Shown here: positions 32,736-64,000 of the stretch, piece after piece | Layout of the letters: the number at the start of each line of letters is the position of its first letter | How positions within the stretch are numbered: the stretch's first letter is position 1 | From: Halosimplex aquaticum | GTDB taxonomy: Archaea > Halobacteriota > Halobacteria > Halobacteriales > Haloarculaceae | Assembly: GCF_028747785.1 (NCBI RefSeq) | Contig: NZ_CP118158.1 | Span: forward strand, 4,588,001-4,652,000 | Length of the DNA: 64,000 bases | Reading direction: 5' to 3' | Position numbers and translations under genes: made by a program | The notes under the pieces: generated by a model | Told to the model about the DNA's origin: nothing | The model's input: the letters and a program-made list of their open reading frames with translations, nothing else | Database searches by the model: none

Positions 32736-33500
32736 TTACGAGTACGTGACGTTCAGTTCGAGGACGTTCGCGGTTTCGAGGACTCGCTTGGGGAGTTCCT
32801 CGCGGAAGCGCTCGTTCTCGAAGCGGTGGGACGGGCCGGAGACGCTGATCGCACCGAGGACGCGGTCGTCGTTGCTGAGGACCGGTGCGGCGACGCACCG
32901 CAGTCCGGACAGGCGTTCCTCGTCGTCGAACGCGACGCCGCGCTCGCGGATGTCCGCAAGCGTCTCGAACAGTTCGTCGCGGTCGGTGACCGTCCGATCG
33001 GTGGTTTCCGGCAGGCCGTGGCGGTCGATGATCTCGTCGACGCGTTCCTCGGAGAGGTGCGCGAGAATGGCCTTCCCGAGCGCCGTGCTGTGCAGGCAGA
33101 CGCGGTTACCGACGTGTTCTTTCACGCGGACCGCGTTCTCGCCGCGGGTTCGATATAGGTAGGTGCCCTTGCCGTGCTCCTCGACGAGGAGGTTGCAGAG
33201 TTCGCCCGTCTCGTTCGCGAGGCGGTCGAGTTCGGGCCGGGCTATCTCGAAGATCTGCGACTGGTTGCGCGCGTACGCGCCGTGTTCGAGGAACCGCAGG
33301 CCGATGCGGTACTGGTCGTCGGCCTTGACGACGTAGGCCTCCTGTTCGAGCGTGCTCAGGTAGTTGTGGACGGTGCTTTTGGGGAGGTCGAGGTGCGTCG
33401 ACAGTTCCGTCACTCCCGCGCCGCCGAGCTCCTGGAGACCGCCGATGATCCGGAATGTGCGTTCGACCGACTTTACCGTGTTTCGCGCGGACTGCGCCAT
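32736..33500 (-). CDS. IclR family transcriptional regulator (XacR-like)
   Basis: This 254-residue regulator has an N-terminal winged HTH (about 10-70: GVTELSTHLDLPKSTVHNYLSTL) and a C-terminal IclR ligand-binding domain (about 85-254: LHSTALGKAILAHLSEERVDEII, RCVAAPVLSNDDRVLGAISVSGP). In Haloferax an IclR protein (XacR) controls xylose/arabinose degradation genes. Here it lies directly downstream of the fumarylacetoacetase-fold dehydratase and near pentose genes, supporting a similar job. A TATA-like ATTAAG (33525-33530, minus strand) is at -25 to -30, and a perfect 10-bp palindrome AACGGCCGTT (33546-33555) is just upstream. Confidence 0.88.
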   Translation of the reverse strand: MAQSARNTVKSVERTFRIIGGLQELGGAGVTELSTHLDLPKSTVHNYLSTLEQEAYVVKADDQYRIGLRFLEHGAYARNQSQIFEIARPELDRLANETGELCNLLVEEHGKGTYLYRTRGENAVRVKEHVGNRVCLHSTALGKAILAHLSEERVDEIIDRHGLPETTDRTVTDRDELFETLADIRERGVAFDDEERLSGLRCVAAPVLSNDDRVLGAISVSGPSHRFENERFREELPKRVLETANVLELNVTYS

Positions 33501-33593
33501 ATCGAGCGAGAGACACCCCGCTGTCTTAATCGTTCTGCAATCGCAAACGGCCGTTCAGATATTCACTCGGCTCCGAGAAAATCCCTCGTGACG

Positions 33594-34457
33594 TCAGACG
33601 GTCGTAACCGGGTTAGTAAGCGTACCGATCCCTTCGATGTCGATCTCGATCTCGTCGCCTTCGCGGAGAGTGAAATCGCCTTCCGGGACGAGCGCTGTTC
33701 CGGTCAACAGAACAGTCAGCCGGGGGACGACGTTGTGGCGGGTGAGATAGGAGGTCAGTTCCTCGCACGTGCGGACCATCTCGCTGGTGTTGGTGGTCCC
33801 CTCGTAGGCGACCTCGCCGTCGCGGTGGATCTGCATGGTCATCTCCAGGTCGTGGGGGTCGTCGACTTCCGAGAGGGAGACGACGCAGGGGCCGAGCGAA
33901 CAGCAGCGGTCGTAGACCTTGGCCTGGGGGAGATAGAGCGGATTCTCGCCCTCGATGGAGCGGCTGCTCATGTCGTTCCCGATGGTGAAGCCGACCATCT
34001 CGCCGTCGAAGAGGACGACGCCGAGTTCCGGTTCGGGCGTGTCCCAGGTGGAGTCGGCCCGGATGCCGACCGCCTCGTCGGGGCCGACCGTCCGGCTCGG
34101 CGTCGCCTTGAAGAATATCTCCGGGCGCTCGCTCTCGTAGACGTCGATGTAGACGTCAGGCTTGTCACTCTCTTCCTGGCGCGCTTCCTCGCTGATCTGG
34201 TAGGTGACGCCGGAGGCCCACACCTCCGGCGGTTCGACGGGCAGGACGACGTCGTCGTCGTCGAACTCGCACTCCTCGGCGTCGTCGAGGTACGCCTCGG
34301 CGCTCTCGTCGAGGCCCTGGCGCGCCTCGTCGGCGCTCGCGAGTAGCTCCTCTACTGTCGCGGGGCCACCCGACGCGCTCGTGAGGTCGTAGGCCGTCTC
34401 TCCGTCGGACGCGACCAGTCGCTGGTCGCTCCCCCGCGTCACTCGGAAGTATCTCAT
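33594..34457 (-). CDS. Fumarylacetoacetase-fold protein, probable 2-keto-3-deoxypentonate dehydratase
   Basis: This 287-residue FAH-superfamily enzyme has the metal-binding Glu pair in TPEPELGVVL (Glu142, Glu144), NDMSSR (161-166) and the KATPSRTVGPDE loop. In haloarchaeal pentose oxidation a FAH-family enzyme converts 2-keto-3-deoxyxylonate/arabinonate to alpha-ketoglutarate semialdehyde; the length and the neighbouring IclR gene agree with that role, but other FAH hydrolases are possible. The start at 34457 follows a TATA (TTAAATA, minus strand, 34483-34489) at leaderless distance and a perfect inverted repeat. It is divergent from the isomerase gene. Confidence 0.75.
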   Translation of the reverse strand: MRYFRVTRGSDQRLVASDGETAYDLTSASGGPATVEELLASADEARQGLDESAEAYLDDAEECEFDDDDVVLPVEPPEVWASGVTYQISEEARQEESDKPDVYIDVYESERPEIFFKATPSRTVGPDEAVGIRADSTWDTPEPELGVVLFDGEMVGFTIGNDMSSRSIEGENPLYLPQAKVYDRCCSLGPCVVSLSEVDDPHDLEMTMQIHRDGEVAYEGTTNTSEMVRTCEELTSYLTRHNVVPRLTVLLTGTALVPEGDFTLREGDEIEIDIEGIGTLTNPVTTV

Positions 34458-34463
34458 GTGTTG

Positions 34464-34598: not shown

Positions 34599-34615
34599 GA
34601 GAGAGGTGAACAAAC

Positions 34616-35581
34616 ATGGACGTAGGTGTGCTGACCGTGGCGCTCGGCGGCGAATCGCTCGAAGACGCGTTCGCGTACCTCTCGGACCAGGGGGTCGACG
34701 CGGTCGAACTCGGGTGCGGCGGGTTCGTCGGCGACGACCACCTCCCCCGCGAGGAGTACCTCGACGACGACGATGCACAGGCCGAACTGCAGGACCTGCT
34801 CGACGAGCACGACCTCTACGTGTCCGCGCTCGCGACGCACAACAACCCGCTCCACCCCGACGACGAGCGGGCCGAACGCGCCGACACGGAACTTCGCGAG
34901 GCCATCACGCTCGCCGACCAGCTCGGCGTCGACGCCGTCACGTGCTTCTCGGGCCTGCCCGCCGGCGGCCCGAACGACGAGACGCCGAACTGGATCACGG
35001 CCCCGTGGCCGAACGAGCACCACGAGGCCCACCAGTACCAGTGGGAGGTCGCGGAGGAGTACTGGTCCGGTCTAGCCGAACACGCGGCCGACCACGACGT
35101 GAAGGTCGCCATCGAGATGCACCCCAACATGCTGGTCTACGAGCCGACCGGCATGCTCGAACTCCGCGAGCGCACGAACGAGTACATCGGCGCGAACTTC
35201 GACCCCTCGCACCTGTTCTGGCAGGGCATCGACATCACCGAGGCCATCCGCTTCCTGGGCGAGGAGGACGCCGTCCACCACTTCCACGCCAAGGACACGA
35301 AGGTCTACGAGGCCAACAGCCGCGTGAAGGGGGTCCTCGATACCGAACCGTACACCGAGGAACCGGACCGCTCGTGGCTGTTCCGTTCCATCGGCTACGG
35401 CCACGGCGAGGAGTTCTGGAAGGACGTCGTCTCGACGCTCCGGATGATCGACTACGACGGCGCCCTCTCCATCGAACACGAGGACTCGCTCACGTCGCCG
35501 AACGAGGGCCTGAAGAAGGCCATCGACGTGCTCCAGCGCTCCGTCTTCGAGACCACCCCCGGCGACGCATACTGGGCCTGA
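34616..35581 (+). CDS. Sugar phosphate isomerase/epimerase (xylose isomerase-like TIM barrel)
   Basis: This 321-residue TIM-barrel protein carries the four metal-ligand positions of the AP-endonuclease-2/xylose-isomerase-like family: Glu in VAIEMHPN, Asp in NFDPSHLFWQ, His in HHFHAKDTK and Glu in SIEHEDS. Such enzymes isomerise or epimerise free or keto sugars and inositols. The gene starts a run of three same-strand genes (the next ATG is 10 nt downstream of its stop) with two Gfo/Idh/MocA oxidoreductases, a classic pairing in inositol and 3-keto-sugar pathways. The substrate is not determined. Confidence 0.85.
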   Translation: MDVGVLTVALGGESLEDAFAYLSDQGVDAVELGCGGFVGDDHLPREEYLDDDDAQAELQDLLDEHDLYVSALATHNNPLHPDDERAERADTELREAITLADQLGVDAVTCFSGLPAGGPNDETPNWITAPWPNEHHEAHQYQWEVAEEYWSGLAEHAADHDVKVAIEMHPNMLVYEPTGMLELRERTNEYIGANFDPSHLFWQGIDITEAIRFLGEEDAVHHFHAKDTKVYEANSRVKGVLDTEPYTEEPDRSWLFRSIGYGHGEEFWKDVVSTLRMIDYDGALSIEHEDSLTSPNEGLKKAIDVLQRSVFETTPGDAYWA

Positions 35582-35591
35582 GGTGACCGAG

Positions 35592-36746
35592 ATGAGTGAC
35601 ACACCCCTCTCCGTCGGCGTGCTCGGGTACCGCTTCATGGGCAAAGCTCACGCGAACGCGCTCGCGCGTCTGCCGATGTTCTTCCCGGAGGCGCCGGAAG
35701 TCGAACGGGAAGTCATCGTCGGGCGCGACGAGGAAGCCCTCGCCGAGGCGGCGGACCGACTCGGCTTCGAGCGCTACGCGACCGACTGGGAAGACGTGGT
35801 CGAGGAGGTCGACGTGTTCTACAACCTCGGGCCGAACAACGTCCACGCCGACCCGTCGATCGCCGCGCTGGAAGCCGACACGCACGTCTTCTGCGAGAAA
35901 CCGCTCGCGCACACCCTCGAAGACGCCGAGCGGATGCGCGACGCCGCCCGCGACTCGGAGGCGACCGCCGGCATCGCCTTCAACTACCGGTTCATCCCGG
36001 CGATCCAGTACGCCAAGAACCTGATCGACGCGGGCGAACTCGGCGAGATCCACCACGTCCGCGGGACGTACCTCCAGGACTGGCTCGTCGACCCCGAGGC
36101 GCCGTGGAGCTGGCGTAACTCGAAGGAACTGGCCGGGTCGGGCGCTCTCGGCGATCTGGGCGCTCACACCATCGACCTGACGCGCTTCCTCGTCGGGGAC
36201 CGGGCAGGGGACATCGCCCGCCTGTCGGGCCAGCTACAGACCTTCGTCGACGAGCGGCCCGTTCCCGGCGGTGACGACGGCTCCCTGTCGGGCGAGGGCG
36301 GCGACTCGGCCGAGACCCGCGAGGTGACCGTCGACGACGCCTACACCGCCCAGGTCGAGTTCGAGAACGGCGCCGTCGCCACCTACGAGGCGTCGCGGTT
36401 CGCCACCGGTTGCAAGAACGACCACAGCGTCGAGATCAACGGCTCGAAGGGCAGCCTGAAGTTCTCGCTCGAACGGCTGAACGAACTCGAACTCCTCCTG
36501 GAGGGCGACCGCGGTTTCCAGACGATCAACGTGACGGAGGCCGACGACCCGTACATGGAGCACTGGTGGCCCGTCGGCCACGTCCTCGGCTGGGAGCACA
36601 CGTTCGTCCACGAGAACTACGAGTTCCTCACGGCCGCGGCCGCCGGCGAGGAGCACTCCCCGTCCTTCGAGGACGGCTATCGCGTCCAGGAACTGCTCGC
36701 CGCAATCGAGGAGTCCGACGCCTCCGGCCAGTGGCTCGAAGTCTGA
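35592..36746 (+). CDS. Gfo/Idh/MocA family oxidoreductase (1)
   Basis: This 384-residue NAD(P)-dependent dehydrogenase has an N-terminal Rossmann domain (VGVLGYRFMGKAHANAL, about 8-24), the EKP motif (CEKPLAHTLED, about 98-108) and the catalytic segment GALGDLGAHTIDLTRF with the conserved Asp/His pair. ATG 35592 is preceded by GGTGA 5 nt upstream; a GTG at 35583 is less likely. It is probably co-transcribed with the isomerase (10-nt gap) and followed by another member at 36842, so it likely oxidises or reduces a sugar C-OH in the same pathway. Confidence 0.88.
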   Translation: MSDTPLSVGVLGYRFMGKAHANALARLPMFFPEAPEVEREVIVGRDEEALAEAADRLGFERYATDWEDVVEEVDVFYNLGPNNVHADPSIAALEADTHVFCEKPLAHTLEDAERMRDAARDSEATAGIAFNYRFIPAIQYAKNLIDAGELGEIHHVRGTYLQDWLVDPEAPWSWRNSKELAGSGALGDLGAHTIDLTRFLVGDRAGDIARLSGQLQTFVDERPVPGGDDGSLSGEGGDSAETREVTVDDAYTAQVEFENGAVATYEASRFATGCKNDHSVEINGSKGSLKFSLERLNELELLLEGDRGFQTINVTEADDPYMEHWWPVGHVLGWEHTFVHENYEFLTAAAAGEEHSPSFEDGYRVQELLAAIEESDASGQWLEV

Positions 36747-36841: not shown

Positions 36842-37918
36842 ATGACGCTGACAGCTGCTGTCATCGGTGCGGGACCGGATCCTGACAACCCCAGCGGCGA
36901 GGGCTACGCGATGGGGTATCGCCACGCCGACGCCTACGAGGCGGTCGACGGCGTCGAACTCCTCGCGGTCGCGGACATCGTCCCCGAGAACGCCCGCGCG
37001 TTCGCGGACGAGTACGGCCTCGGCGACGACCGCGTCTTCGAGGACTACGAGTCGATGCTCGACGCGGTCGAACCGGACGTCGTCAGCGTGACCGTTCCGC
37101 CGGCGCTCCACGCGGACATCTCGCTCGGGTGCATCCGGAGCGGCGTCGTCGAGGCCGTCCACTGCGAGAAGCCGATGTCGCGCACCTGGGCCGAGGCCCG
37201 CGCGATGGCCGAGGAAGCGGACAGTCACGACGTCCAGCTGACGTTCAACCACCAGCGCCGCTTCGGCGAGCCGTTCCGCCGGGCGAAGGAACTGCTCGAC
37301 GACGGCGAGATCGGCGACCTCGAACGCGTCGAGTTCTCCGCGCCCAACGTCTACGACTACGGGAGTCACTCGTTCGACCTCTGTTCGTTCTACAACGACG
37401 AGGCCGAGGCGGAGTGGGTGCTCGCGAGCGTCGACTACCGCGAGGAGGACGTCCTCTTCGGCGCCCACAACGAGAACCACGCCGTCGTCCAGTGGCGCTA
37501 CGAGAACGGCGTCACCGGCCTGGCGACGACCGGCGTGGGAGCGGAGACGGTCGCCTGTCACAACAGGCTGGTCGGCAGCGACGGCGTCATCGAAGTCGGC
37601 CCCGGCGGCGTCGCCGCCTCGGAACCCCTCCGGATCCGCCGCGACGGCGAGGGCTGGGAGTCTATCGACTGCGACGAGGGAGTCCACGGCGGCGACTGCA
37701 TCCGGCGTGCGATCGCCGACGTCGTCGAGGGCGTCGAAACGGGCGACGCCTCGGAGCTGTGTGCCCAGAATGCCCTCGTCGGCACGGAGCTGATATTCGG
37801 CGCCTGGGAGTCCGCGCGCCGCCGCGGCCGCGTCGACTTCCCCCTGGAGATCGACGACAACCCCCTCGAATCGATGGTCGAATCGGGCGACCTGACGCCG
37901 GAATCCGGCGAGTCCTGA
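36842..37918 (+). CDS. Gfo/Idh/MocA family oxidoreductase (2)
   Basis: This 358-residue protein starts TAAVIGAGPDPDNPSGEGYAM, a Rossmann Gly motif interrupted by a short insertion typical of some haloarchaeal members. It has EKP (HCEKPMSRTW, about 104-108), a FNHQRRF segment and NVYDYGSHSFDL with the catalytic Asp/His pair. The second domain is the usual open beta sheet. It follows the first Gfo/Idh/MocA gene on the same strand; a hairpin after the stop may end the transcript. Either protein could supply the fructuronate reductase step missing from the island; this is a guess. Confidence 0.85.
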   Translation: MTLTAAVIGAGPDPDNPSGEGYAMGYRHADAYEAVDGVELLAVADIVPENARAFADEYGLGDDRVFEDYESMLDAVEPDVVSVTVPPALHADISLGCIRSGVVEAVHCEKPMSRTWAEARAMAEEADSHDVQLTFNHQRRFGEPFRRAKELLDDGEIGDLERVEFSAPNVYDYGSHSFDLCSFYNDEAEAEWVLASVDYREEDVLFGAHNENHAVVQWRYENGVTGLATTGVGAETVACHNRLVGSDGVIEVGPGGVAASEPLRIRRDGEGWESIDCDEGVHGGDCIRRAIADVVEGVETGDASELCAQNALVGTELIFGAWESARRRGRVDFPLEIDDNPLESMVESGDLTPESGES

Positions 37919-38552: not shown

Positions 38553-40262
38553 CTACCGTCGTCCGTCGAGCAGGTCGACGAGCGTCCAGTAGGCGTCTTT
38601 CGGTCGGCGGTACTCGGTGACGATCCCCTTGTTGTTCCGCGAGCGCGGTCGGGTCATCGCGTGGTCGGGGTTCCCGAGCGTGTCGCAGAACTGCCAGACG
38701 GTGAACCCGGCGACGCCGTCGCGCTCGCGGAACAGTTCGACGCAGTCGGCGAGGAGTTCGGCCTGGTAGGTCTCGGACCACTTCCGGCCGGCGTGGGTCC
38801 GCTCGCCGGGGACGGCGCCGGCGCCGAACTCGGAGACGACGATCGGTTTCTCGTCGTACGAATCCTCGATGCGGTCGAGGTGCTCCGACCAGTCGCCGTC
38901 GTCGCGGTACCAGCCCCAGTAGGCGTTCACGCAGAGGAAGTCGCAGTACTGGAACGCGCGGTCGGTCTCGCCTTCCCAGTCGGCGTTCGAGGCGACAGTG
39001 ACCAGCCGGGAGTCGTCGAGGCCGTCGACGATCTCGCGGAGCTGGCTCGTCGCGTCCGCGACGGTCCGCTGTTCGTTCGCGCACTCGTTCGAGAGACTCC
39101 AGGCGAATATCGACGGGTGGTGGCGATCCCGCTCGACCATCTCGACGAGCGTCTGCTGACCGACTTGCTCGCACCCGGTCACGGTTGACTCGTCGACCTG
39201 CCAGAGCGGGATCTCTTCGATGACGAGGATCCCCTCCTCGTCGCACAGGTCCAGAAAACGGGGGTGGTTCGGGTAGTGCGAACAGCGGATCGTGTTACAT
39301 CCCGCCCGCTGGATGATATCCAGGTCCTGCTGCTGGATGCGAAGCGGCTGGGCCGCGCCCCAGTCGGGGTGGTCCTCGTGGCGGTTGACGCCCGCGAGAG
39401 AGACGGGTTCGCCGTTGAGCAGGATGTCCCGACCGTCGACCGCTACCTCGCGGAACCCGATGCGGTCGCGGAGGTCGTCCGCGAACGTCTCGCCCTCGCG
39501 GTCTTCGCTCTGGGCACCCCGAAGCTCGGCTTCGACGTCGTACAGCGTCGGGTCGTCGAGCGTCCAGCGGTCTACGTCGTCTATTTCGAGCGTTACCGTC
39601 GTCGTCTGGGCGTCCATCCCGTCGACGCCGACGGACTCGGCCACCGTCGCCTCGCCGACGGACACGGCGAGTTCGGGTTCGGCCGGCCGCGGGCCGAGGT
39701 TGTTGAGAGTTACCTCCGCATCGACGGTCGCCGCGTCCCCGGACAGTTCGTACTCCAGCGCGAGGTCCCGGAGGAAGACGTCGGGGACGGCCTCGACGAC
39801 GACCTCGCGGTAGATCCCGCCGTGGGGGAACCAGTCGACGTCGTCGTGCGGGACCGTCGTCTCGGTGTGAGTGTTGTCCGCGCGGACGACCAGCTCGTGC
39901 TCGCCGGCGTCGAGGTCACGGGCCAGCCCGGTGAACGGCGTGTAGCCGCCGACGTGACTGGTCAGTTCCTCGCCGTCGAGATAGACGGTGGCCTCGCGGG
40001 CGACGCCGTGAAACGTGACGAGGACCGACCCCGCGTCGCGGAGGCCGAAGGTCCGCCGGTACCACGCCGGCCCGACGTAATCCGCGTGTTCGGTCCGCGC
40101 TTCCCACGAACTCGGGACCGCGATCCGGTCGGCCGCCTCGCTCGGAAAGTCCTCGTGATACCCCGCCTCGCGCCCCTCGTCGTCGGGGTCGGTGACGAAC
40201 TCCCACGGTCCGTCCAGCGTCTGTCGTCGGCGTTCCGTCGTGGTCTCGAAGGTCCTGTGCAT
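38553..40262 (-). CDS. Glycoside hydrolase family 2 (beta-glucuronidase/galactosidase-like)
   Basis: This 569-residue enzyme has the GH2 architecture: jelly-roll (about 15-165), Ig-like domain (about 170-275) and TIM barrel. The GVNRHEDHPDWG motif, acid/base Glu393 (SLSNECANE) and nucleophile Glu478 (VVSEFGAGAVPG) are visible. The following AGRKWSETYQAELL and GFTVWQFCDT segments resemble beta-glucuronidases (UidA) more than LacZ. There is no signal peptide, so it acts inside the cell on imported oligosaccharides. A uronide substrate would fit glucuronoxylan breakdown but is not certain. Confidence 0.85.
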   Translation of the reverse strand: MHRTFETTTERRRQTLDGPWEFVTDPDDEGREAGYHEDFPSEAADRIAVPSSWEARTEHADYVGPAWYRRTFGLRDAGSVLVTFHGVAREATVYLDGEELTSHVGGYTPFTGLARDLDAGEHELVVRADNTHTETTVPHDDVDWFPHGGIYREVVVEAVPDVFLRDLALEYELSGDAATVDAEVTLNNLGPRPAEPELAVSVGEATVAESVGVDGMDAQTTTVTLEIDDVDRWTLDDPTLYDVEAELRGAQSEDREGETFADDLRDRIGFREVAVDGRDILLNGEPVSLAGVNRHEDHPDWGAAQPLRIQQQDLDIIQRAGCNTIRCSHYPNHPRFLDLCDEEGILVIEEIPLWQVDESTVTGCEQVGQQTLVEMVERDRHHPSIFAWSLSNECANEQRTVADATSQLREIVDGLDDSRLVTVASNADWEGETDRAFQYCDFLCVNAYWGWYRDDGDWSEHLDRIEDSYDEKPIVVSEFGAGAVPGERTHAGRKWSETYQAELLADCVELFRERDGVAGFTVWQFCDTLGNPDHAMTRPRSRNNKGIVTEYRRPKDAYWTLVDLLDGRR

Positions 40263-40654: not shown

Positions 40655-41404
40655 TCAGTGGACGGTGCGGTCGTCGCTGGTGTCGATGTCCTCGCGGGGC
40701 TCGGCGTTGCCCTGGCTGTAGGTCGCGCGCTCGTCGCTCGGCGCGGCCCACTCGACGGCGTTGGCGACGACACGCTGGATCTCCTCGTCGTGGTACACCG
40801 GGTAGGTCTCGTGGCCGGGTCGGAAGTAGAAGATCCGGCCGTCGCCGCGGCGGTAGGTACAGCCCGAGCGGAACACCTCGCCGCCCTCGAACCAGGAGTT
40901 GAACACCAGCGTCTCGGGCTGGGGGACGTCGAAGCGCTCGCCGTACATCTCCGCCTCGTCGAGTTCGATGCAGTCGTCGATGCCCTCGGCGATGGGGTGG
41001 CTCGGCTCGATGACCCACAGGCGCTCGCGCTCGGCTGCCTCGCGCCACTTGAGCGCGCACGTCGTCCCCATCAGCTCGCGGAAGATCTTCGAGAAGTGCG
41101 CCGAGTGGAGGACGATCAGGCCCATGCCGTCGAGGACGTGCTCCTTGACGCGCTCGACGACCGCGTCGTCGACCTCGTCGTGGGCGGCGTGGCCCCACCA
41201 CGTCAGGACGTCGGTCTCGTCGAGGACGTCCTCGGTGAGCCCGTGCTCGGGTTCCTGCAGGGTCGCCGTCTCGGTGTCGAAGCCGCGCTCGGCGAGCGCG
41301 TCGGCGATGGCCCCGTGGATCCCGTCCGGGTAGATCTCGGCGACGGTGTCGTTTTCCTGCTCGTGGACGAACTCGTTCCAGACCGTGACGCGGGTGTCGG
41401 GCAT
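40655..41404 (-). CDS. ThuA domain-containing protein
   Basis: This 249-residue class I glutamine amidotransferase-like protein shows the ThuA pattern: [11 protein letters not shown] at the N-terminus, [43 protein letters not shown] and the final [31 protein letters not shown]. ThuA acts with Gfo/Idh/MocA dehydrogenases in trehalose and 3-keto-sugar catabolism in rhizobia and other bacteria. Its presence here, with two such oxidoreductases and a sugar isomerase 4-6 kb away, suggests an oxidative glycoside pathway. The exact chemistry is inferred. Confidence 0.88.
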
Positions 41405-48636: not shown

Positions 48637-48660
48637 CGGGACGGATTCACCTGTTACGGT

Positions 48661-55841: not shown

Positions 55842-55849
55842 ACCGGTTC

Positions 55850-55872: not shown

Positions 55873-56216
55873 CCACTGATGTTGGAAACACCGCTCCAGA
55901 TTACAGTACTATGTATGTTTTCCATCAACCCGCTCACGTGACCAGTTAGCTCGGGGAGACGAAGAGCGCCTCGGCGTGACTCGGGGCTGTGACGGCGTTA
56001 TTTATAATGGTCTATCGTGACTGGCGAGATCCACTATCGTTGGATACGATTGTGCGGATAGATACCACGCCGAACGGTGGCTACTCGTCCCAGGCGGACC
56101 GGAGAACAGTTCGGTCGGAGTCACTCACCGGGGATCGCTTCGCAGAGAACGAGGGGTGCCAGGCGTCGGATCGCGACGGGCGGCCGGACCGAGGACGTGT
56201 CGAGTGCGGTCCCGTA
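55873..56216. other. Gene-free stretch between the second IclR gene and uxuA
   Basis: About 340 bp. It contains a strong TATA-like TTATTTATAAT at about 55999-56009 on the plus strand but no downstream frame with haloarchaeal composition; a small RNA promoter is possible. Otherwise nothing was recognised. Confidence 0.4.
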
Positions 56217-57272
56217 TCACCGGGACTGATCTGACCGCATCGCCCGGAGCATACCGCGGATGTAACCGACGGTGAACGCGCGGCCGCGGTGTTCCCAGTC
56301 GGTGTCGTCTTCCAGATGCGGGGTGTGGTCGGGGATCATCAGCCCGGAAAAGTCCACTTCGTCGAGGAGTTGCAACAGCGCGTACTCGTCGTAGTTGCCC
56401 TCGTCGAGGAAGTCTTCGGAAAAGCGCGGGACCGTCCCGGAGACGTCGCGGAAGTGGACGTAGACGATCTCGTCGCGCTCGCCGAAGTAGCGGACGACCT
56501 CGTCGAGCGGTTCGCCCATCTCCGACCAACAGCCCAGACAGAGGTCGAGCCCGTGATAGTCGCTCTCGCGGTAGGTCATCGCTCGCTTGAAGTTCTCGAA
56601 GTTGCGGAACAGCTGCGGGACCCCGCCGAGTCGCTCCATCGGCGGGTCGCTCGGGTGCAGCGCCAGCGTGACGCCCGCCTGTTCGGCGACGGGGAGTATC
56701 TCGTCGAGAAAGTACTCGTAGTTCTCCCAGAGTTCTGCCTCGGAGTACTCCCGGCCGTGAGTCAGTTCGTCGGCGTCGGCAGCGTCCGCGTCGAACACGG
56801 ACACCTCCGCGCCGCCGCGAGCCGTTTCCCACCCCGTCCGCCAGACGCCCGCGGGCGCCCAGTGATACCCGAAAATCGGGATCCCCGCCTCGCCCATGTT
56901 CCGGATCGTCTCCTTGAGTCGGCCCAGCTGTCCGTCGCGCTCGGGCCCGCCGAGCATCACGTCCTCGTAGTAGGAGACCGGGACGTTCTCGATGGCGTTG
57001 AGGCGCAGGCCCTCGGCCTCGACGCGCTCGCGGAGGTCACGCAGCGCGTCGACCGACCACGCATCCTCGCCCGACAGCGGTACCCGCTCGTCGTCGGGCA
57101 TGTGCTCGTAGTCCGGGTCGTCTACCTGGTACATGTTCAACAGCACGTCGGACCCGCCCAGTTGCTTGACGTATCGCAGGCGCTCGGAGGTCGGGTCCAT
57201 GAACTGCCCCGCTCCCACCCGCATCGGTAGCTCCGCTCGGGAGGGGAGCGGCTCACTGCCTTCAGTAGCCAT
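56217..57272 (-). CDS. uxuA: Mannonate dehydratase
   Basis: This 351-residue TIM-barrel enzyme dehydrates D-mannonate to 2-keto-3-deoxygluconate. Recognised segments are NAIENVPVSYYEDVMLGGPERD, IPIFGYHWAPAGVWRT, LALHPSDPPMERLGG, CLGCWSEMG and YVHFRDVSGTVPRFSEDFLDEGNYD, with the metal-binding His, Cys, His and Asp of UxuA. With glucuronate isomerase it completes two of the three steps from glucuronate to KDG; fructuronate reductase (UxuB) is not visible. A TATA-like GTTTTATG (minus strand) at 57296-57303 is at -24 to -31. Confidence 0.93.
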   Translation of the reverse strand: MATEGSEPLPSRAELPMRVGAGQFMDPTSERLRYVKQLGGSDVLLNMYQVDDPDYEHMPDDERVPLSGEDAWSVDALRDLRERVEAEGLRLNAIENVPVSYYEDVMLGGPERDGQLGRLKETIRNMGEAGIPIFGYHWAPAGVWRTGWETARGGAEVSVFDADAADADELTHGREYSEAELWENYEYFLDEILPVAEQAGVTLALHPSDPPMERLGGVPQLFRNFENFKRAMTYRESDYHGLDLCLGCWSEMGEPLDEVVRYFGERDEIVYVHFRDVSGTVPRFSEDFLDEGNYDEYALLQLLDEVDFSGLMIPDHTPHLEDDTDWEHRGRAFTVGYIRGMLRAMRSDQSR

Positions 57273-57471: not shown

Positions 57472-59871
57472 ATGACGGACGGCTCTCACACCGACCGCCT
57501 GTGGTACGACGGACCCGCGAGCGAGTGGGTCGAGGCGCTGCCGATCGGAAACGGCCGCCTCGGCGGGATGGTCCACGGGCGACCCGGCGCCGAGCGGGTC
57601 GCGCTCAACGAGGAGCGACTGTGGGCCGGAGACCACGCCGACCGCACGGCCGAGGGCGGGCCCGCGGACCTCCGGGCGGTCCGCGACCGGCTCTGGGCCG
57701 GCGAGTTCGAGCAGGCGCAGCGCCTCTGCAACGAGTTCTTCGTCACCGAAGCGCAGGGCGTCCCGCCGTACCAGCCCTTCGGCGACCTCCTGATCGACCT
57801 CCCGGGGCACGACGACCCCGCGACGTACCGCCGCTCGCTCGACCTCCGCGACGGGATCGCCCGGGCCGAGTACACCGTCGACGGGGCCCGATTCGAGCGC
57901 GAGTACCTCGCGAGCGCGCCGGACGACGCGCTCGCCGTCCGACTGGAGAGCGACGAACCGGGCGCGCTCGACGCCCGGATCCGGCTCGACCGCGACCGCT
58001 GCGCCCGGACCGCGGTCGTGGACGACACGGTCGTCCTCCGCGGACAGGTCGTCGGCGTCCCCGGCGACGACGAGGACGTCGAACCCGGCGGCTGGGGACC
58101 GCGCTTCGAAGGCCGCGCGCGGGTCCGCGCCGAGGGCGGCAGCGTCGTCGCCGCCTCCGAAATCGAGGCCGAAGCCGAGCGTGACGACGAGGGAACCGCT
58201 GGGTTCCTCGCGGGCGACGAGGGCATCGTCGTCCGCGACGCCGACGCGGTGACCGTGCTGTTCACCGCCGAGACCGTCCCTTCGGACGGCGACCCGACGA
58301 CGGACTGCCGGGAGACGCTCGCCGCGCTCGCGGGCGAGGACTACGCGAGCATCCGCGAGCGCCACGTCGGTGACCACCGCGAGTACATGGAGCGCGTGAC
58401 GCTGGACGTCGGCGAGCCGATCGATCTGCCGACCGACGAGCGGCTCGACCGGGTCCGCGGCGGCGCCCGCGACCCGCACCTCGAACGGCTGTACTTCCAG
58501 TACGGTCGGTACCTCCTGCTGGGCTCCTCGCGACCGGGGACGCTCCCGGCGAACCTCCAGGGGATCTGGAACGAGGAGTACCACCCGCCGTGGGACTGCA
58601 ACTACACGCTCGACGTCAACCTGGAGATGAACTACTGGCACGCGGAGGCGACGAACCTCGCCGAGTGCGCCGAGCCGCTGGTCTCGTTCGTCGATGACCT
58701 CCGCGAGCCGGGCCGCCGGACCGCTCGCGACCGCTACGGCTGTGGGGGCTTCTGCGTGCACCTCCAGAGCGACCGCTGGCACACGACGAGCCAGACGGTA
58801 GACGCCCACTGGGGCCACTGGCCGACGGGCGCCGCGTGGCTCTGCCAGAACCTCTGGGAGCGCTACGCCTTCTCCGGGGACGAAGCGGACCTCGAACGGG
58901 TCTACCCGACGCTCAGGGAAGCGGCCGAGTTCCTGCTCAACTACCTCGTCGAGCACCCGGAGAGGGACTGGCTGGTGACCGCGCCGTCGGCGTCGCCGGA
59001 GAACCAGTTCCGGACGGCCGACGGTCAGGAGGCGACGACCTGCGTCATGCCGACGATGGACGTCCAGTTGACGCGCGACCTGTTCGGCCACTGTATCGAG
59101 GCGGCCGAACGGCTCGACCGCGACGCCGGCTTCGCCGCCGACCTCCGCGACGCGCTCGATCGACTCCCGCCGATGCAGGTCGGCGACGACGGTGCCCTGC
59201 AGGAGTGGCTTGAAGACTACGCGGAGGTGAACCCGGGCCACCGACACGTCTCCCACCTCGTGGGGTTCTATCCGGCCGACGTGCTCTTCGGGGACGACCT
59301 GGCGCTGGACCGTTCGGAACTCCGCGACGCCGTCCGCGCGTCGCTGGAGCGGCGTCTCGACAACGGAGGCGGACACACCGGGTGGTCCTGCGCGTGGACT
59401 ATCGCTCTGTTCGCTCGCCTGGGCGACGGCGAGGGCGTCGCCGACCACGTGCACAAACTCCTGGCCGACTCGACGTACGACTCGCTGCTCGACTCGCACC
59501 CGCCCTACCAGATCGACGGTAACTTCGGCGGGGCGGCGGGCATCGCCGAGGCGCTCGTCGGGAGCCACGGCAGCGAACTGCGACTCCTCCCGGCGCTCCC
59601 CGAGGGGTGGGAGGACGGAGCAGTCAGCGGACTGCGCGCCCGCGGCGGGTTCGAGGTGGACCTCGCCTGGAGCGACGGCCGACTCGACGAGGCCACCGTT
59701 CGCGCCGAGCGCGACGGGCCCTGTCGGGTCCGCGTCCCGGAGGCGGGAATCGATCGGGTCGAGACGGCCGACGGAACGCCCGTCGAGATCGAACGCGAGA
59801 ACGGCGTGCTCGCCTTCGAGGCGTCGGCGGGCGAGACCTACGCGCTCGCGGTCGACCGGGCGGACCCGTGA
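57472..59871 (+). CDS. Glycoside hydrolase family 95 (alpha-L-fucosidase/galactosidase-like)
   Basis: This 799-residue protein shows the GH95 order: N-terminal beta domain starting RLWYDGPASEWVEALPIGNGRLGGM, linker, and the (alpha/alpha)6 barrel with NYTLDVNLEMNYWHAEATNLAE (about 376-397), EWLEDYAEVNPGHRHVSHL and SHPPYQIDGNFGG, which supply the family's catalytic Asn/Glu/Asp residues. GH95 members remove alpha-1,2-fucose or alpha-L-galactose, for example from xyloglucan side chains. No signal peptide is present, so it is predicted to be cytoplasmic. It is divergent from uxuA. Confidence 0.9.
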   Translation: MTDGSHTDRLWYDGPASEWVEALPIGNGRLGGMVHGRPGAERVALNEERLWAGDHADRTAEGGPADLRAVRDRLWAGEFEQAQRLCNEFFVTEAQGVPPYQPFGDLLIDLPGHDDPATYRRSLDLRDGIARAEYTVDGARFEREYLASAPDDALAVRLESDEPGALDARIRLDRDRCARTAVVDDTVVLRGQVVGVPGDDEDVEPGGWGPRFEGRARVRAEGGSVVAASEIEAEAERDDEGTAGFLAGDEGIVVRDADAVTVLFTAETVPSDGDPTTDCRETLAALAGEDYASIRERHVGDHREYMERVTLDVGEPIDLPTDERLDRVRGGARDPHLERLYFQYGRYLLLGSSRPGTLPANLQGIWNEEYHPPWDCNYTLDVNLEMNYWHAEATNLAECAEPLVSFVDDLREPGRRTARDRYGCGGFCVHLQSDRWHTTSQTVDAHWGHWPTGAAWLCQNLWERYAFSGDEADLERVYPTLREAAEFLLNYLVEHPERDWLVTAPSASPENQFRTADGQEATTCVMPTMDVQLTRDLFGHCIEAAERLDRDAGFAADLRDALDRLPPMQVGDDGALQEWLEDYAEVNPGHRHVSHLVGFYPADVLFGDDLALDRSELRDAVRASLERRLDNGGGHTGWSCAWTIALFARLGDGEGVADHVHKLLADSTYDSLLDSHPPYQIDGNFGGAAGIAEALVGSHGSELRLLPALPEGWEDGAVSGLRARGGFEVDLAWSDGRLDEATVRAERDGPCRVRVPEAGIDRVETADGTPVEIERENGVLAFEASAGETYALAVDRADP

Positions 59872-60081: not shown

Positions 60082-60107
60082 TGTGCATTACTTGCGACGT
60101 ACGTACT

Positions 60108-60114
60108 GGAGGTG
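60108..60114 (+). promoter_or_regulatory. Strong Shine-Dalgarno GGAGGTG deciding the GH11 start
   Basis: GGAGGTG is 7 nt before the GTG at 60122. Few genes in this window have so complete an anti-16S match; it points to a leadered, strongly translated mRNA. A GTG 13 codons upstream lacks such a site and was rejected. Confidence 0.7.
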
Positions 60115-60121
60115 CGACACT

Positions 60122-61330
60122 GTGACAGAAGAGAGCGAACACCACGGAGCAGAGGCATCAGCGGACGACCACGCGGGCGGACTCGACCGCCGGGACTACA
60201 TGCGAGCGATGGCGGCCGCCGCGGCAACCGGCGTCGGCGCCGGCGTCACGGCGACCACGGCCACCGCCGCCATCACCTCGAACCAGACCGGAACCGACGA
60301 CGGCTACTACTACTCGTTCTGGACCAACGACGAGGGTACCGTCTCGATGACGCTGGGAGACGGCGGCAACTACAGCGTCGACTGGAACAACACGGGCAAC
60401 TTCGTCTGTGGCAAAGGCTGGGAGACCGGCGCTCGCCGAAACGTCGACTACAACGCGTCGACGTTCAATCCGGGGAGTAACGGGTACCTGTGTCTCTACG
60501 GCTGGACCACGGACCCGCTGGTCGAGTACTACATCGTCGAGGATCACGGTAGCTACCGGCCCGAACACGACTACAAAGGGACGGTCGACACCGACGGGGG
60601 GACCTACGACATCTACGAGTCGCTACGGGAGAACGCCCCCTCGATCGAGGGGACCGCCACCTTCCCACAGTACTGGAGCGTCCGACAGAACACGCGGACG
60701 AGCGGCACGATCACCACCGGCAACCACTTCGACGCGTGGGCCAGCAACGGCATGGACATGGGCAGCCACGACTACCAGATCCTGGCCACAGAGGGCTACC
60801 AGAGCAGCGGGAGCTCCGACGTCACGGTGGGTGACGCCGGCGGCGGTGACGGCGGTGATGGCGGTTCGGGCGGCGACGACGGCAGCGGTTCGTCCGGGTC
60901 CGTCGCGAACGGCACCTACAGCATCCGGAACGTCAACAGCGGCAAGGCGCTGGACGTCGCCGGCGAGTCGACCGAAGACGGTGCCAACGTCCAGCAGTAC
61001 AGCTACTGGGGCGGATCGAACCAGCAGTGGAACGTCGAGGACACCGGCAACGGCGAGTACCGCATCGAGAACGTCAACAGCGGGAAGGTGCTCGACGTCT
61101 CCGGCTCCTCGACCTCCGACGGGGCGAACGTCCAGCAGTACGCCGACGGCGGCGGCGACAACCAGCGGTTCCACCTGCACGACCAGGGCGGCGGCGAGTA
61201 CCACGTCCAGCCCGTCCACAGCGACAAGGCCGTCGAGGTCGAGGGGTCCTCGACCGACGATGGCGCCAACGTCCAGCAGTACAGCTGGTCCGGCAACGGC
61301 AACCAGCTGTGGACCTTCGAATCCGTCTGA
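60122..61330 (+). CDS. Secreted endo-1,4-beta-xylanase GH11 with CBM13 ricin-type lectin domain
   Basis: The 402-residue protein has a Tat signal ([17 protein letters not shown], cleaved near TATAA at about residue 50). A GH11 jelly roll (about 52-236) follows, with nucleophile Glu135 ([10 protein letters not shown]) and acid/base Glu224 ([14 protein letters not shown]). A Gly/Asp/Ser linker (about 237-260) leads to a beta-trefoil CBM13 (261-402) with three repeats containing [24 protein letters not shown] and the QxW positions (NQQWNV, NQRFHL, NQLWTF). It would cleave polymeric xylan outside the cell and bind it through the lectin. GH11 is otherwise mostly bacterial and fungal, so acquisition by transfer is plausible. 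Confidence 0.94.
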
Positions 61331-61476: not shown

Positions 61477-63552
61477 TCAGTCCTCGCGGGGGACTCGCCC
61501 CTTCTCGTCGGCGATCCCGGAGTAGTCGTAGAAGAAGTCCGTCAGCCGGTCGCGCCAGATCCCGGCGTGTTCGACCTGCTCGTCGAAGCGCTCGGCGACG
61601 TGGCGGTACCGCTCTTCGTCGATCTCACCCTCCAGCGTCCGCCACTCCTCGCGGAGTCGCCGGGCCTCCTCGACGCCGGCGTGACAGTTGTCGTACAGCG
61701 TCTGGACGACGGTCCGGCCGTCCGATAGTTCGTAGTCCCAGGGGAGGTGGTGGAAGAACAGGAGCAACTCCTTCGGACAGGACTCCGGGTCGTCGTACAG
61801 GTCGGCGAGGGCGTCGGGGTACTGCTGGGCGTACCCGTTGCCCTCCGAGTTGCGGTCCTTCCCGATCCCGTCCTCGGTCGCGCCGGTGTATCCGGGCCAC
61901 TCCTCGGGACCGGGGTCGTAGTGGTTCTCCAGGTAGGCCTCGCCGTTGTACATCATGTGCATCAGGCCGATACCGCCGGTCGAGTAGTCGATGACTGCCG
62001 GCCACGTGTCGTGCATGATGTCGGTGACCGTCTCCACCACGTCGGGGTCGTGGCCGAACGTCTGGCGGACCCACTCGTCGGTGATCGCCTCGGTTTCGAG
62101 GTCGGGATCCCACGCGAGGCGGCCGTAGCCGTAGAGGTTCGCCTGCGCGAGGTAGTGGCCGGTCCAGCTTCTGTCCTCGCCGGGACCGCCGACTCCGGCC
62201 ATCCCGGTCCCCTCGTCGGTGAACAGGTCCTTCACTTTCGTGCCGTGGCCCTCGGGGTCGGTGTCGAACTCCAGGACCTCCTTCCACATCGGGACGTGAT
62301 AGCAGGCGTGGACGTGCTGACCGGTGTACTCCCCGGTGATCTGGAGTTCCAGCCCAAGTTCGGTCTCGGGCATCTGCCCGAACACCGGCGAGACGGGCTC
62401 GCGGGGCTGGAAGTCGATGGGGCCGTTCTTGACCTGGATCGTGACGTTGTCGCGGAACTCGCCGTCGAGTGGTTCGAAGGTGTCGTACTGCTGGACGGCG
62501 CGGTCCTTGTGCGAGCCGTAGACGAACGCGCGCCACCAGACGCGGCCGCCGTGGGGTTCCAGCGCCTCGGCGAGGACGTTCGCGCCGTCGACGTGGTCGG
62601 CGTCGTAGTTGTACGGTCCCGGTTGGCCCTCCGAGTCGGCCTTGACGAGAAAGCCGCCGAAGTCGGGGATCAGGTCGTAGATCTCGTCGGCTTTCTCGGC
62701 CCACCACTGCGCGACTTCGGGGTCGTTGGGGTCCGAGGTGTCGAGGCCGCCGATCTTCTCGGGCGCGCCGAAGTTGACCGAGAGGTAGGTCGTGGTGCCG
62801 TACCGGCGGAGGAGGGAAGCGAGACCGGTCAGCTTCTCCAGATAGCGCGTTTCGAGCAGGCGCCACCCCTCCAGTACGTCCATCGCCTCGTTGGCGCTGT
62901 CGCGGCCCGGGATCTGCGTGTTGACGTTGTTGAGGACGATCCCGTTGATCCCGACCGACGCGAGCAGCCGCGCGTAGTCGCGGTAGCGCTCCCGGAGATC
63001 CGGCAGCGTCTCGAAGTCGAAGACGGACTGGCCGGCGTAGCCCCGCTCGACCGACCCGCGGAAGGGGTTGTCCCAGTGATTGATCAGCCGGTCGGGCGAG
63101 GCGGGTTCCTCGACGACGTGGACGTCCTCGATCGGCTCGTGATTCGACAGCAGCCGCAACAGGTGGAAGGTACCGTAGACGAGCCCGCTGTCCGACGACG
63201 CGGAGACGACGAGCACGTCGGTTCCCTCCCACTCGCCGGTCGTGATCACGTAGCCGCCCTCGGCGAGGTCGGCGACGCGCTCCTCGTCGACGCACTGGGC
63301 CACCACGTCCATGTCCGCTGGCGTACCGACGGCGAGGAAGCCGTCGGTCGTGCGGGGCGGGTGCTGCCAGAGGTGCGGGTCGCGCCCGAGCAGGCCGCCG
63401 AGGCCGCGACGGAGTTCCTCGCGGACCGCTCCGAGTTCGCGGGACTGCTCGGAGACGTAGGCGTGCGAACAGAGACGCCGGTAGGACGCCCGGAGGGCCT
63501 CGTCGCGGACCTCGCGGTATCGGAGCCAGCAGTCGTCGTAATCGGGTTGCAT
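61477..63552 (-). CDS. Alpha-glucuronidase, GH67
   Basis: This 691-residue enzyme removes (4-O-methyl-)glucuronic acid from the non-reducing end of xylo-oligosaccharides. The catalytic residues align with those known for GH67: Glu308 (VKADSEGQPGP), Asp380 (KNGPIDFQPREP) and Glu408 (ITGEYTG), with spacing (72 and 28) close to the characterised Cellvibrio enzyme. N-terminal GFLAVGT and LLRLLSNHEP and the central INHWDNPFRGSVERGYAG block are also typical. No signal peptide. The start at 63552 (MQPDYDDCWLRY) is preferred over seven extra residues. It feeds uxaC and uxuA and is convergent with GH11. Confidence 0.95.
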   Translation of the reverse strand: MQPDYDDCWLRYREVRDEALRASYRRLCSHAYVSEQSRELGAVREELRRGLGGLLGRDPHLWQHPPRTTDGFLAVGTPADMDVVAQCVDEERVADLAEGGYVITTGEWEGTDVLVVSASSDSGLVYGTFHLLRLLSNHEPIEDVHVVEEPASPDRLINHWDNPFRGSVERGYAGQSVFDFETLPDLRERYRDYARLLASVGINGIVLNNVNTQIPGRDSANEAMDVLEGWRLLETRYLEKLTGLASLLRRYGTTTYLSVNFGAPEKIGGLDTSDPNDPEVAQWWAEKADEIYDLIPDFGGFLVKADSEGQPGPYNYDADHVDGANVLAEALEPHGGRVWWRAFVYGSHKDRAVQQYDTFEPLDGEFRDNVTIQVKNGPIDFQPREPVSPVFGQMPETELGLELQITGEYTGQHVHACYHVPMWKEVLEFDTDPEGHGTKVKDLFTDEGTGMAGVGGPGEDRSWTGHYLAQANLYGYGRLAWDPDLETEAITDEWVRQTFGHDPDVVETVTDIMHDTWPAVIDYSTGGIGLMHMMYNGEAYLENHYDPGPEEWPGYTGATEDGIGKDRNSEGNGYAQQYPDALADLYDDPESCPKELLLFFHHLPWDYELSDGRTVVQTLYDNCHAGVEEARRLREEWRTLEGEIDEERYRHVAERFDEQVEHAGIWRDRLTDFFYDYSGIADEKGRVPRED

Positions 63553-63749
63553 ACGAGTCCCAATCACCGTCACTCACTTAAACGCTACCGACGAGGGGCT
63601 CGCGGGCGCCGAACGAGGGGAGAGCGGTCGATTCCGTACCGCTCGCCCTTCGCGCCACGTCTCGTGCGCCGGCGGTCTCCTCCCGGTCGGTTCCGTTAGT
63701 CAAGGGGAAAACATTTATGTGTGATATTCACCACGTTCGAGGCATATCC

Positions 63750-64000
63750 ATGCCAGCCGGCGATCCATCAGGATCGGACAGTACCGACAGCGACGGTGCC
63801 GCTATCGGCCGCCGGCCGTTGCTGGGGGCGCTCGCGGCCGTCGGCCTCGCGGGGTGTCCTGGACAGAGCGGGGACGGTGAGACGGATTCACCGGGCGACG
63901 ACAGCGAGGTGACGGAACCCGCGACGGACGGCGTCGGCGGGACGACCCCGCGGACGGCGGCAGACGGCTGGCCGGACGTCGCGGACCCGTACTACGGGCG
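63750..64000 (+). CDS. Lipoprotein N-terminus, truncated by window end
   Basis: The frame opens with ATG 63750 and stays open to the last base: MPAGDPSGSDSTDSDG, then GRRPLLGALAAVGLAGC, a signal with lipobox ending at Cys36, and an acidic Thr/Ser/Gly linker, ending in PDVADPYYGR. The signal closely resembles those of the GH5 lipoprotein and the solute-binding protein in this island. A TATA-like CATTTATG is at about 63711-63718. The catalytic or binding domain is beyond the window, so only exported, membrane-anchored location can be claimed. Confidence 0.7.
   Translation, partial: MPAGDPSGSDSTDSDGAAIGRRPLLGALAAVGLAGCPGQSGDGETDSPGDDSEVTEPATDGVGGTTPRTAADGWPDVADPYYG

What the first reader, a model, noticed from the sequence alone, without database searches (positions are those of the whole stretch)
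32736..64000. Hemicellulose utilisation island in a haloarchaeon
Within 31 kb lie GH11+CBM13, GH10, GH67, GH51, GH31, GH95, GH2 and a GH5 lipoprotein, with xylose dehydrogenase-like, FAH-fold dehydratase, UxaC, UxuA, a binding lipoprotein and two IclR regulators. Catalytic residues are present in each glycosidase checked. This is a polysaccharide-utilisation-locus-like arrangement for glucurono-arabinoxylan and xyloglucan, with exported depolymerases and intracellular side-chain enzymes. It suggests a haloarchaeon able to use plant polymers at high salt.
Basis: partly seen in the sequence, partly recalled or inferred. Interest (0 to 1): 0.8.

Follow-up and report, generated by a model that had tools for sequence, protein, structure and literature searches.

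The report
Haloarchaeal xylan-degradation gene island
A salt-loving archaeon (genus Halosimplex) carries a gene island, shared by its sister species, for breaking down plant xylan, and one overlooked gene in it may be a new kind of enzyme filling a missing step in glucuronic acid breakdown.

Summary
In detail: Pfam confirms the named glycosidases, UxaC, a UxuA-like protein and two IclR regulators in 32.7-63.6 kb. The island continues past the window to about 89.8 kb, adding a second GH10, GH3, an Opp/Dpp-type ABC transporter, an enolase-type dehydratase and the haloarchaeal 2,5-dioxovalerate dehydrogenase. Its core was found in 6 of 6 further Halosimplex genomes examined. The core is glucuronoxylan; xyloglucan is less sure, as GH5 was in 0 of 6. 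GH67-UxaC-UxuA adjacency in a haloarchaeon was published in 2011 (PMC3102087).

New here: the classical fructuronate reductase is absent (0 of 391 genomes), although 48 of 391 have UxaC. A luciferase-like, F420-type oxidoreductase (53954-55036), not mentioned in the finding, lies within 6 kb of UxaC in 9 genomes. It was never found together with the SDR-type D-mannonate oxidoreductase (19 and 18 of 391; both 0). A prediction for four Halosimplex genomes came true. I propose an F420-dependent fructuronate reductase (about 0.45). Against: eight carriers lack UxaC.

The parts
32736..33500 (-). IclR-family regulator 1
   Evidence: Pfam IclR_C/HTH_IclR; 96-97% identical in 5 of 6 congeners; in the sixth (G007) the fetched stretch ends before its place
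33594..34463 (-). FAH-fold enzyme, candidate 2-keto-3-deoxy-xylonate dehydratase (ORF runs to 34778; start set from the 289-aa ORF of G002)
   Evidence: PF01557; ORF length in G002; function inferred
34616..35581 (+). xylose-isomerase-like TIM barrel (AP_endonuc_2)
   Evidence: PF01261; 93-95% identical in 6 of 6 congeners
35583..36746 (+). Gfo/Idh/MocA dehydrogenase, levoglucosan-dehydrogenase-like
   Evidence: NF052479 361 bits, cut-off 650 not met; best PDB chain 4h3v 'oxidoreductase', E 1e-105
36842..37918 (+). second Gfo/Idh/MocA dehydrogenase, patchy
   Evidence: PF01408; in 1 of 6 congeners
38553..40262 (-). GH2, beta-galacturonidase/beta-glucuronidase-like
   Evidence: PF02836; PDB 6ncw E 4e-92
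40655..41404 (-). ThuA domain protein
   Evidence: PF06283
41574..43700 (-). GH5 + fn3 + CBM9, TAT-type lipoprotein
   Evidence: Pfam; 0 of 6 congeners
43919..46057 (+). solute-binding lipoprotein SBP_bac_5 (ORF from 43562, likely start 43919)
   Evidence: PF00496; RR...LAGC N-terminus by eye
46095..48650 (-). GH31, alpha-xylosidase-like
   Evidence: PF01055; PDB 5jou/7kmp/2xvg alpha-xylosidases, E 6e-152 or better
48661..49647 (+). GH10 without signal peptide, likely intracellular (ORF from 48088)
   Evidence: PF00331 E 6e-97; N-terminus by eye
49672..50739 (-). D-xylose 1-dehydrogenase Gfo6
   Evidence: NF041392 440 bits, over cut-off 350
50827..52191 (-). glucuronate isomerase UxaC (ORF begins at 52365; likely start at 52191)
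   Evidence: PF02614 E 3e-142; start by eye
52375..53856 (+). GH51-type alpha-L-arabinofuranosidase
   Evidence: PF06964; in 1 of 6 congeners
53954..55036 (+). luciferase-like F420-type oxidoreductase, proposed fructuronate reductase
   Evidence: PF00296; distribution; motifs
55068..55937 (-). IclR-family regulator 2
56217..57272 (-). UxuA-like mannonate dehydratase
   Evidence: PF03786 175 bits; NCBIfam cut-offs not met
57472..59871 (+). GH95
   Evidence: PF22124 E 7e-161; PDB 7kmq E 3e-162
60083..61330 (+). GH11 xylanase + ricin-B (CBM13-like), TAT-type N-terminus
   Evidence: PF00457, PF14200; N-terminus by eye
61477..63573 (-). GH67 alpha-glucuronidase
   Evidence: PF07488; PDB 1mqp E 3e-184
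63717..63998 (+). start of second GH10 (lipoprotein, 713 aa, ends at 65858 in window coordinates, outside the window)
   Evidence: PF00331 on L034:1717-3858

Best explanation
A genus-conserved glucuronoxylan-utilisation island of about 57 kb (32.7 to 89.8 kb in window coordinates). Inferred working: TAT-exported GH11-CBM13 and GH10 lipoproteins cut xylan outside; binding lipoproteins and an Opp/Dpp-type ABC transporter import oligosaccharides; intracellular GH10, GH3, GH67 and (here) GH51, GH31, GH95 trim them. Xylose goes by the oxidative route (Gfo6 dehydrogenase, enolase-type dehydratase, FAH-fold dehydratase, 2,5-dioxovalerate dehydrogenase). Glucuronate goes UxaC, then a reductase, then the UxuA-like dehydratase to KDG. 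Shown here: gene content, order, conservation and family membership. Inferred: substrates, transport, regulation. The least certain step, given its own odds in the section on the most novel reading and not part of this confidence, is that the reductase is the F420-type luciferase-like protein at 53954-55036.
For: Families. Same gene order around GH67 in G002, G003, G004 (H. pelagicum) and G006, bounded by ordinary XPB and MutS genes on the left. GH67, UxuA, UxaC, Gfo6, FAH, GH10, GH11, GH31, GH2, GH3, transporter genes, MR_MLE dehydratase and dioxovalerate dehydrogenase found in 6 of 6 congeners. Gfo6 (440 vs 350 bits) and dioxovalerate dehydrogenase (804 vs 750 bits) pass equivalog cut-offs. 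GH67 matches solved alpha-glucuronidases over nearly its whole length. GH67, UxaC, GH10, GH11 and GH3 recur together in other haloarchaeal genera, for example L082, L086, L088.
Against: No expression or growth data. The MR_MLE dehydratase (216 vs cut-off 311) and the UxuA-like protein (143 vs 191; 87 vs 199.6) miss their NCBIfam cut-offs. GH5, GH51 and one Gfo/Idh are patchy, so not all genes serve one substrate. A chaperonin-like gene (by eye) and a MoxR-type AAA gene interrupt the right-hand part.
Confidence: 0.82

Rival explanations
1. The luciferase-like protein is an F420-dependent hexuronate (or sugar) 1-dehydrogenase, feeding an aldarate branch, not a fructuronate reductase.
For: F420-dependent glucose-6-phosphate dehydrogenase is a relative in the PDB search (5lxe, E 1e-17). 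In 8 of 19 carriers there is no UxaC and no UxuA-type protein above 50% identity; in seven of these eight it stands beside GH4 and one or two enolase-type dehydratases.
Against: Does not explain why it was never found with the SDR D-mannonate oxidoreductase, nor what fills the reductase step. In G392 and G182 an NAD epimerase/dehydrogenase-family protein (Epim17 group) stands close to it already.
Confidence: 0.2
2. The luciferase-like protein is a monooxygenase that removes the 4-O-methyl group of methylglucuronate released by GH67.
For: The same superfamily includes FMN-dependent monooxygenases; in Halosimplex it sits in a GH67 island.
Against: Closest solved relatives are F420 enzymes; it is linked to UxaC also in L083, L094 and L100, where no GH67 was found in the 20 kb read; seven GH67-bearing UxaC loci lack it (L085, L087, L088, L109, L111, L113, L116).
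Confidence: 0.07
3. The fructuronate reductase is one of the Gfo/Idh/MocA proteins of the island or an unlinked SDR, and the luciferase-like gene has an unrelated role.
For: Two further SDR groups (SDR40, SDR13) occur in 5 of 11 and 5 of 11 luciferase-like carriers with UxaC.
Against: The second Gfo/Idh gene is in only 1 of 6 congeners; the levoglucosan-dehydrogenase-like one is in all 7 genomes, so it cannot explain the swap. G000 had no hit for the three SDR types (candidates scored: 6 of 48, 55 of 68, 50 of 50).
Confidence: 0.25
4. The cluster is a loose pile of carbohydrate genes without a common substrate.
For: Patchy GH5, GH51, GH4 and varying GH10 copy number.
Against: Conserved order across the genus and recurring GH67/UxaC/UxuA/GH10/GH3 linkage in other genera.
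Confidence: 0.07

Closest known systems
Halorhabdus utahensis GH67-UxaC-UxuA cluster (PMC3102087, passages read)
   Same: alpha-glucuronidase, glucuronate isomerase and mannonate dehydratase adjacent in a haloarchaeon; GH10 and GH11 xylanases in the genome
   Different: H. utahensis uses xylose isomerase; here the oxidative xylose route is in the island. That paper's main text has no 'fructuronate' or 'F420'.
E. coli / B. subtilis Uxa-Uxu hexuronate pathway (recalled)
   Same: UxaC and UxuA-like steps
   Different: No Mannitol_dh_C (PF08125) reductase in 391 Halobacteria genomes; the SDR kind (NF006132, which rings in B. subtilis among the controls) in 18 of 391
F420-dependent alcohol dehydrogenase (1rhc) and F420-dependent glucose-6-phosphate dehydrogenase (5lxe, 3b4y)
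   Same: Superfamily; with 1rhc, aligned FHP and GAGEA segments
   Different: Distant by score (1rhc 91 bits); the tryptophan after FHP in 1rhc is a threonine here
Geobacillus glucuronoxylan cluster and Bacteroidetes PULs (recalled)
   Same: Exported xylanase, intracellular GH10 and GH67, ABC import (Geobacillus)
   Different: No SusC/SusD-like hit in the 20 island ORFs or the 10 right-hand ORFs

Membership tests
Haloarchaeal oxidative xylose pathway | Gfo6 D-xylose dehydrogenase | tested here: met
   NF041392 440 vs 350 bits
Haloarchaeal oxidative xylose pathway | 2,5-dioxovalerate (ketoglutarate semialdehyde) dehydrogenase | tested here: met
   NF052305 804 vs 750 bits, L035:6314-7792
Haloarchaeal oxidative xylose pathway | xylonate dehydratase and 2-keto-3-deoxy-xylonate dehydratase | tested here: inconclusive
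   MR_MLE and FAA_hydrolase families only; no NCBIfam cut-off met
GH67 alpha-glucuronidase | match over all three family domains | tested here: met
   PF07488/PF07477/PF03648; 1mqp residues 3-675 of 679
UxaC glucuronate isomerase | family profile | tested here: met
   PF02614 475 bits, cut-off 25
UxuA mannonate dehydratase | curated NCBIfam cut-off | tested here: not met
   143 vs 191 and 87 vs 199.6 bits; the Pfam PF03786 cut-off is met, so called UxuA-like only
Classical UxuB/UxaB reductase | Mannitol_dh_C domain in the genome | tested here: not met
   0 of 1 own genome, 0 of 391 of the class; control genomes ring in 7 of 14
SDR-type D-mannonate oxidoreductase | NF006132 over cut-off in this genome | tested here: not met
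   no hit in G000 (6 of 48 first-look candidates were scored); present in 18 of 391
F420-dependent luciferase-like oxidoreductases | Bac_luciferase family profile | tested here: met
   PF00296 208 bits
F420-dependent luciferase-like oxidoreductases | use of F420 as cofactor | not testable with these tools
   closest solved sequences are F420 enzymes, but no F420 NCBIfam cut-off is met among the 25 families shown (best 134.5 vs 166.9)
Bacteroidetes PUL | SusC/SusD pair | tested here: not met
   no such Pfam hit in 20 + 10 ORFs

The most novel reading that the evidence does not exclude
The luciferase-like protein at 53954-55036 is an F420-dependent 5-keto-hexuronate (fructuronate, perhaps tagaturonate) reductase: a non-homologous replacement of UxuB and of the Bacillus-type SDR, linking archaeal uronate breakdown to the deazaflavin F420. 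Where UxaC and UxuA are absent it may serve beside altronate-dehydratase-type proteins.
Probability: 0.45. Interest if true: 0.72.

Novelty: new variant of a known kind. Interest (0 to 1): 0.5.

Why it matters
The island makes Halosimplex a testable archaeal glucuronoxylan degrader. The distribution data point to a specific missing enzyme in archaeal glucuronate breakdown and to one candidate gene; if right, it adds a sugar-acid reductase to the F420 enzymes and an example of the same step being filled by at least three unrelated protein families.

Tried and rejected
Structure of the luciferase-like protein: AlphaFold2 with three sequences gave mean pLDDT 43.1, so no fold search was made and nothing rests on it.

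SDR40 and SDR13 as further exclusive partners: rejected at genome level; each occurs in 5 of 11 luciferase-like carriers with UxaC (Fisher p 0.74 and 1.0).

A second luciferase-like protein (about 33%) first looked like a substitute in G002 and G007; it is also in G006, which has the main one, so rejected as compensation.

A separate clade for UxaC-linked luciferase-like proteins: not found; the UxaC-linked copies need 4 label changes, and of 23 inner branches 3 are well supported and 9 open.

Paper searches: the ThuA / glycoside 3-dehydrogenase search matched 6,062 papers, of which the 8 listed are on place and food names. F420 with mannonate gave 3 papers, none on topic by title; F420-dependent with haloarchaea and luciferase-like gave 0; 'fructuronate reductase' with 'archaea' listed 8, none opened.

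tRNA-Leu inside GH2: no Rfam match in the window, treated as false.
Full report
WHERE IT LIES. The window is bases 4,588,001-4,652,000 of a 4.82-Mb contig in a 5.16-Mb genome. GH67 is 87-90% identical to Halosimplex salinum, H. carlsbadense and H. pelagicum, and the tool places seven other genomes in the same genus, one of them (G004) with the contig length of H. pelagicum R2, so this is a Halosimplex. GC3 of the likely genes is about 0.9 and the proteins are acidic.

OBSERVATION. The enzymes named in the finding are there and pass Pfam cut-offs. Several long ORFs begin too early: by eye, GH10 probably starts at 48661 and has no signal peptide, the SBP starts at 43919, UxaC (minus strand) at 52191 and the FAH protein (minus strand) at 34463. 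Exported proteins, judged by eye from twin-arginine and lipobox-like N-termini, are GH11-CBM13, GH5-CBM9, the SBP and the second GH10.

THE ISLAND IS LARGER THAN THE WINDOW. To the right follow a second GH10 lipoprotein (63717-65858), GH3, binding proteins, two BPD_transp permeases and two ATPases, a third IclR, an enolase-superfamily dehydratase (86945-88228) and an aldehyde dehydrogenase (88314-89792) that passes the haloarchaeal 2,5-dioxovalerate dehydrogenase cut-off (coordinates beyond 64000 are window coordinates continued; one ATPase, the thermosome-like gene, the IclR and one binding protein without a Pfam hit were named from BLAST likeness or their N-terminus). With Gfo6 and the FAH-fold protein these make up the oxidative xylose route, as far as family membership can say. 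In four congeners read over 80 kb the same order holds, with XPB and MutS on the left, and PALP where the stretch reaches. In six congeners (G002-G007) the core genes were found in 6 of 6; GH95 in 5 of 6, GH51 and the second Gfo/Idh in 1 of 6, GH5 in 0 of 6 (in the stretches fetched, which do not all reach the left border). In the three congeners whose genes I listed, GH10-lipoprotein copies vary and a GH4 is present that is missing here. G001 of the same genus (71% complete, no GH67) was not examined further.

SUBSTRATE. The conserved core (GH10, GH11, GH67, GH3, Gfo6, UxaC, UxuA-like) fits glucuronoxylan. GH31 is closest to solved alpha-xylosidases and GH95 to solved GH95 enzymes including alpha-L-fucosidases, so xyloglucan side chains are possible. 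GH5 matches many GH5 cellulase/endoglucanase structures (best E 4e-24) and none of the 39 hits is named as a xyloglucanase. GH2 is closest to a beta-galacturonidase.

THE MISSING REDUCTASE. The glucuronate route needs a reductase between UxaC and UxuA (recalled). The classical one has a Mannitol_dh_C domain: 0 of 1 in this genome and 0 of 391 Halobacteria genomes, while the same search rings in 7 of 14 control genomes. UxaC is in 48 of 391, at 53 places once two fragment rows of G131 are dropped. I read neighbourhoods of 40 places, nine more and the islands of G000, G002 and G006, that is 52 of 53. One recurring neighbour is a short-chain dehydrogenase whose representative passes the curated D-mannonate oxidoreductase cut-off (368 vs 281 bits). 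Another is a luciferase-like protein, the orthologue of window 53954-55036, which the finding did not mention.

DISTRIBUTION. Orthologues of the luciferase-like protein (70-100% identity) are in 19 of 391 genomes; a 20th hit, G080 at 48%, I dropped. The SDR of NF006132 is over cut-off in 18 of 391, and all 18 have UxaC. No genome has both. Two cautions: these class searches scored only the best 5 or 6 first-look candidates per genome, and I take it from the equal counts and shared handles that the four class searches drew the same 391 genomes. Among the 48 UxaC genomes 11 have the luciferase-like protein, 18 the SDR, 19 neither (Fisher p 0.0034; luciferase-like with UxaC p 1e-6). Relatedness is not corrected for in these p-values. 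At the 53 UxaC places, within 6 kb: luciferase-like 9, NF006132 SDR 10, two other SDR groups 10 and 9, nothing of these 15, never two kinds at one place (luciferase-like against any SDR p 0.0003). The two other SDR groups are not exclusive genome-wide, and their function is a guess.

A PREDICTION THAT COULD HAVE FAILED. Of the Halosimplex genomes, G002 lacks the luciferase-like gene and has the SDR, while G000 and G006 are the reverse. G007 was known to lack the gene in the island, and G003-G005 to have it. I wrote down that G007 should have the SDR and G003, G004, G005 should not. The search, with every candidate scored, gave exactly that, and a whole-genome search found the luciferase-like gene in G003-G006 and not in G002 or G007. 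So 7 of 7 examined genomes have one and not the other: 5 and 2 (for G000, G002 and G006 the SDR result is). The SDR lies at the same chromosomal place in G002 and G007, so this may be one event, not two. Seven UxaC genomes with neither (G055, G194, G036, G319, G347, G407, G270) were searched again at E 1e-30: 0 of 7 had the luciferase-like gene. Beside UxaC of G055 there is a 58-residue piece matching the SDR, and G407 has none of the four candidates, so a further reductase must exist or the step is missing there.

AGAINST THE REDUCTASE READING. Eight of the 19 carriers have no UxaC (six of one genus, plus G311 and G392), and the best UxuA-type protein in these eight is 50% identical. Even G284, where the gene is next to UxaC, has a UxuA-type protein of only 49%. 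In the six-species genus and in G392 the gene follows GH4 and one or two enolase-type dehydratases (in G236 my gene caller did not list the gene, though one search places it there). In G175 and G182, the two read by Pfam, a split altronate/galactarate dehydratase (GD_AH, SAF) stands nearby, which would fit a tagaturonate reductase, but with no UxaC in the six-species genus the supply of tagaturonate is unexplained. In G182 and G378 the gene is unlinked to UxaC and an SDR40 is the neighbour instead.

MECHANISM. The protein is in the Bac_luciferase family and its closest solved relatives are F420 enzymes: methylene-tetrahydromethanopterin reductase, F420-dependent alcohol dehydrogenase, and further down F420-dependent glucose-6-phosphate dehydrogenase. 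The alignment with the alcohol dehydrogenase keeps FHP and GAGEA segments. PDHLFHPT, DSVRRHP and GIGAGEAFNF are invariant in 22 orthologues. The alcohol dehydrogenase interconverts a ketone and a secondary alcohol, which is the chemistry of fructuronate/mannonate (recalled). That haloarchaea make F420 is recalled, not tested. The step from this to 'fructuronate reductase' is inference from context and distribution.

LITERATURE. PMC3102087 (passages) proposed the E. coli-like glucuronate pathway for H. utahensis and H. turkmenica and noted GH67 adjacent to UxaC and mannonate dehydratase in H. utahensis; the words fructuronate and F420 do not occur in its main text. PMC9726719 (passages) gives xylan and xyloglucan growth of haloarchaea and names Halosimplex among cellulose users. 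The listings (8 of 6,062 seen) showed no paper, by title, on a haloarchaeal fructuronate reductase or on this island; only the two papers named were opened, and the library holds open-licence PubMed Central papers only.

VERDICT. The finding is real and its main reading (xylan island in a haloarchaeon) is right, but it is of a kind already described and is cut short by the window. The more interesting part is the overlooked gene at 53954-55036.

Noticed in passing
window 34616-36746 and 40655-41404; L173 5688-18000: AP_endonuc_2, levoglucosan-dehydrogenase-like Gfo/Idh and ThuA (79-83% identical) with FAH recur near GH31 and UxaC in G378, a genome of another family; this may be a 3-keto-glycoside type pathway (recalled analogy) of unknown substrate.
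   Followed up: partly
window 39671-39745: ARAGORN calls a tRNA-Leu(gag) antisense inside the GH2 gene; Rfam finds nothing, so probably a false call.
   Followed up: yes
window coordinates 90461-126602 (L004, L005): Right of the island GC3 drops to about 0.5-0.8 after a gene that looks like a site-specific recombinase by eye; perhaps a mobile region, not searched.
   Followed up: no
G006, G002, G007 islands between ThuA and GH31: A second luciferase-like protein, about 33% identical to the first, with an adjacent protein of 627-666 aa that had no match in my small annotation set.
   Followed up: partly
G002, G006, G007 islands between UxuA/GH95 and GH11: A GH4 gene (71-72% to the other haloarchaeal GH4) present in these three congeners is missing from this window.
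   Followed up: no
L101, L104, L097 and others: Two further SDR groups (SDR13, SDR40) sit within 6 kb of UxaC in 19 of 53 places and may be additional, independent reductases.
   Followed up: partly
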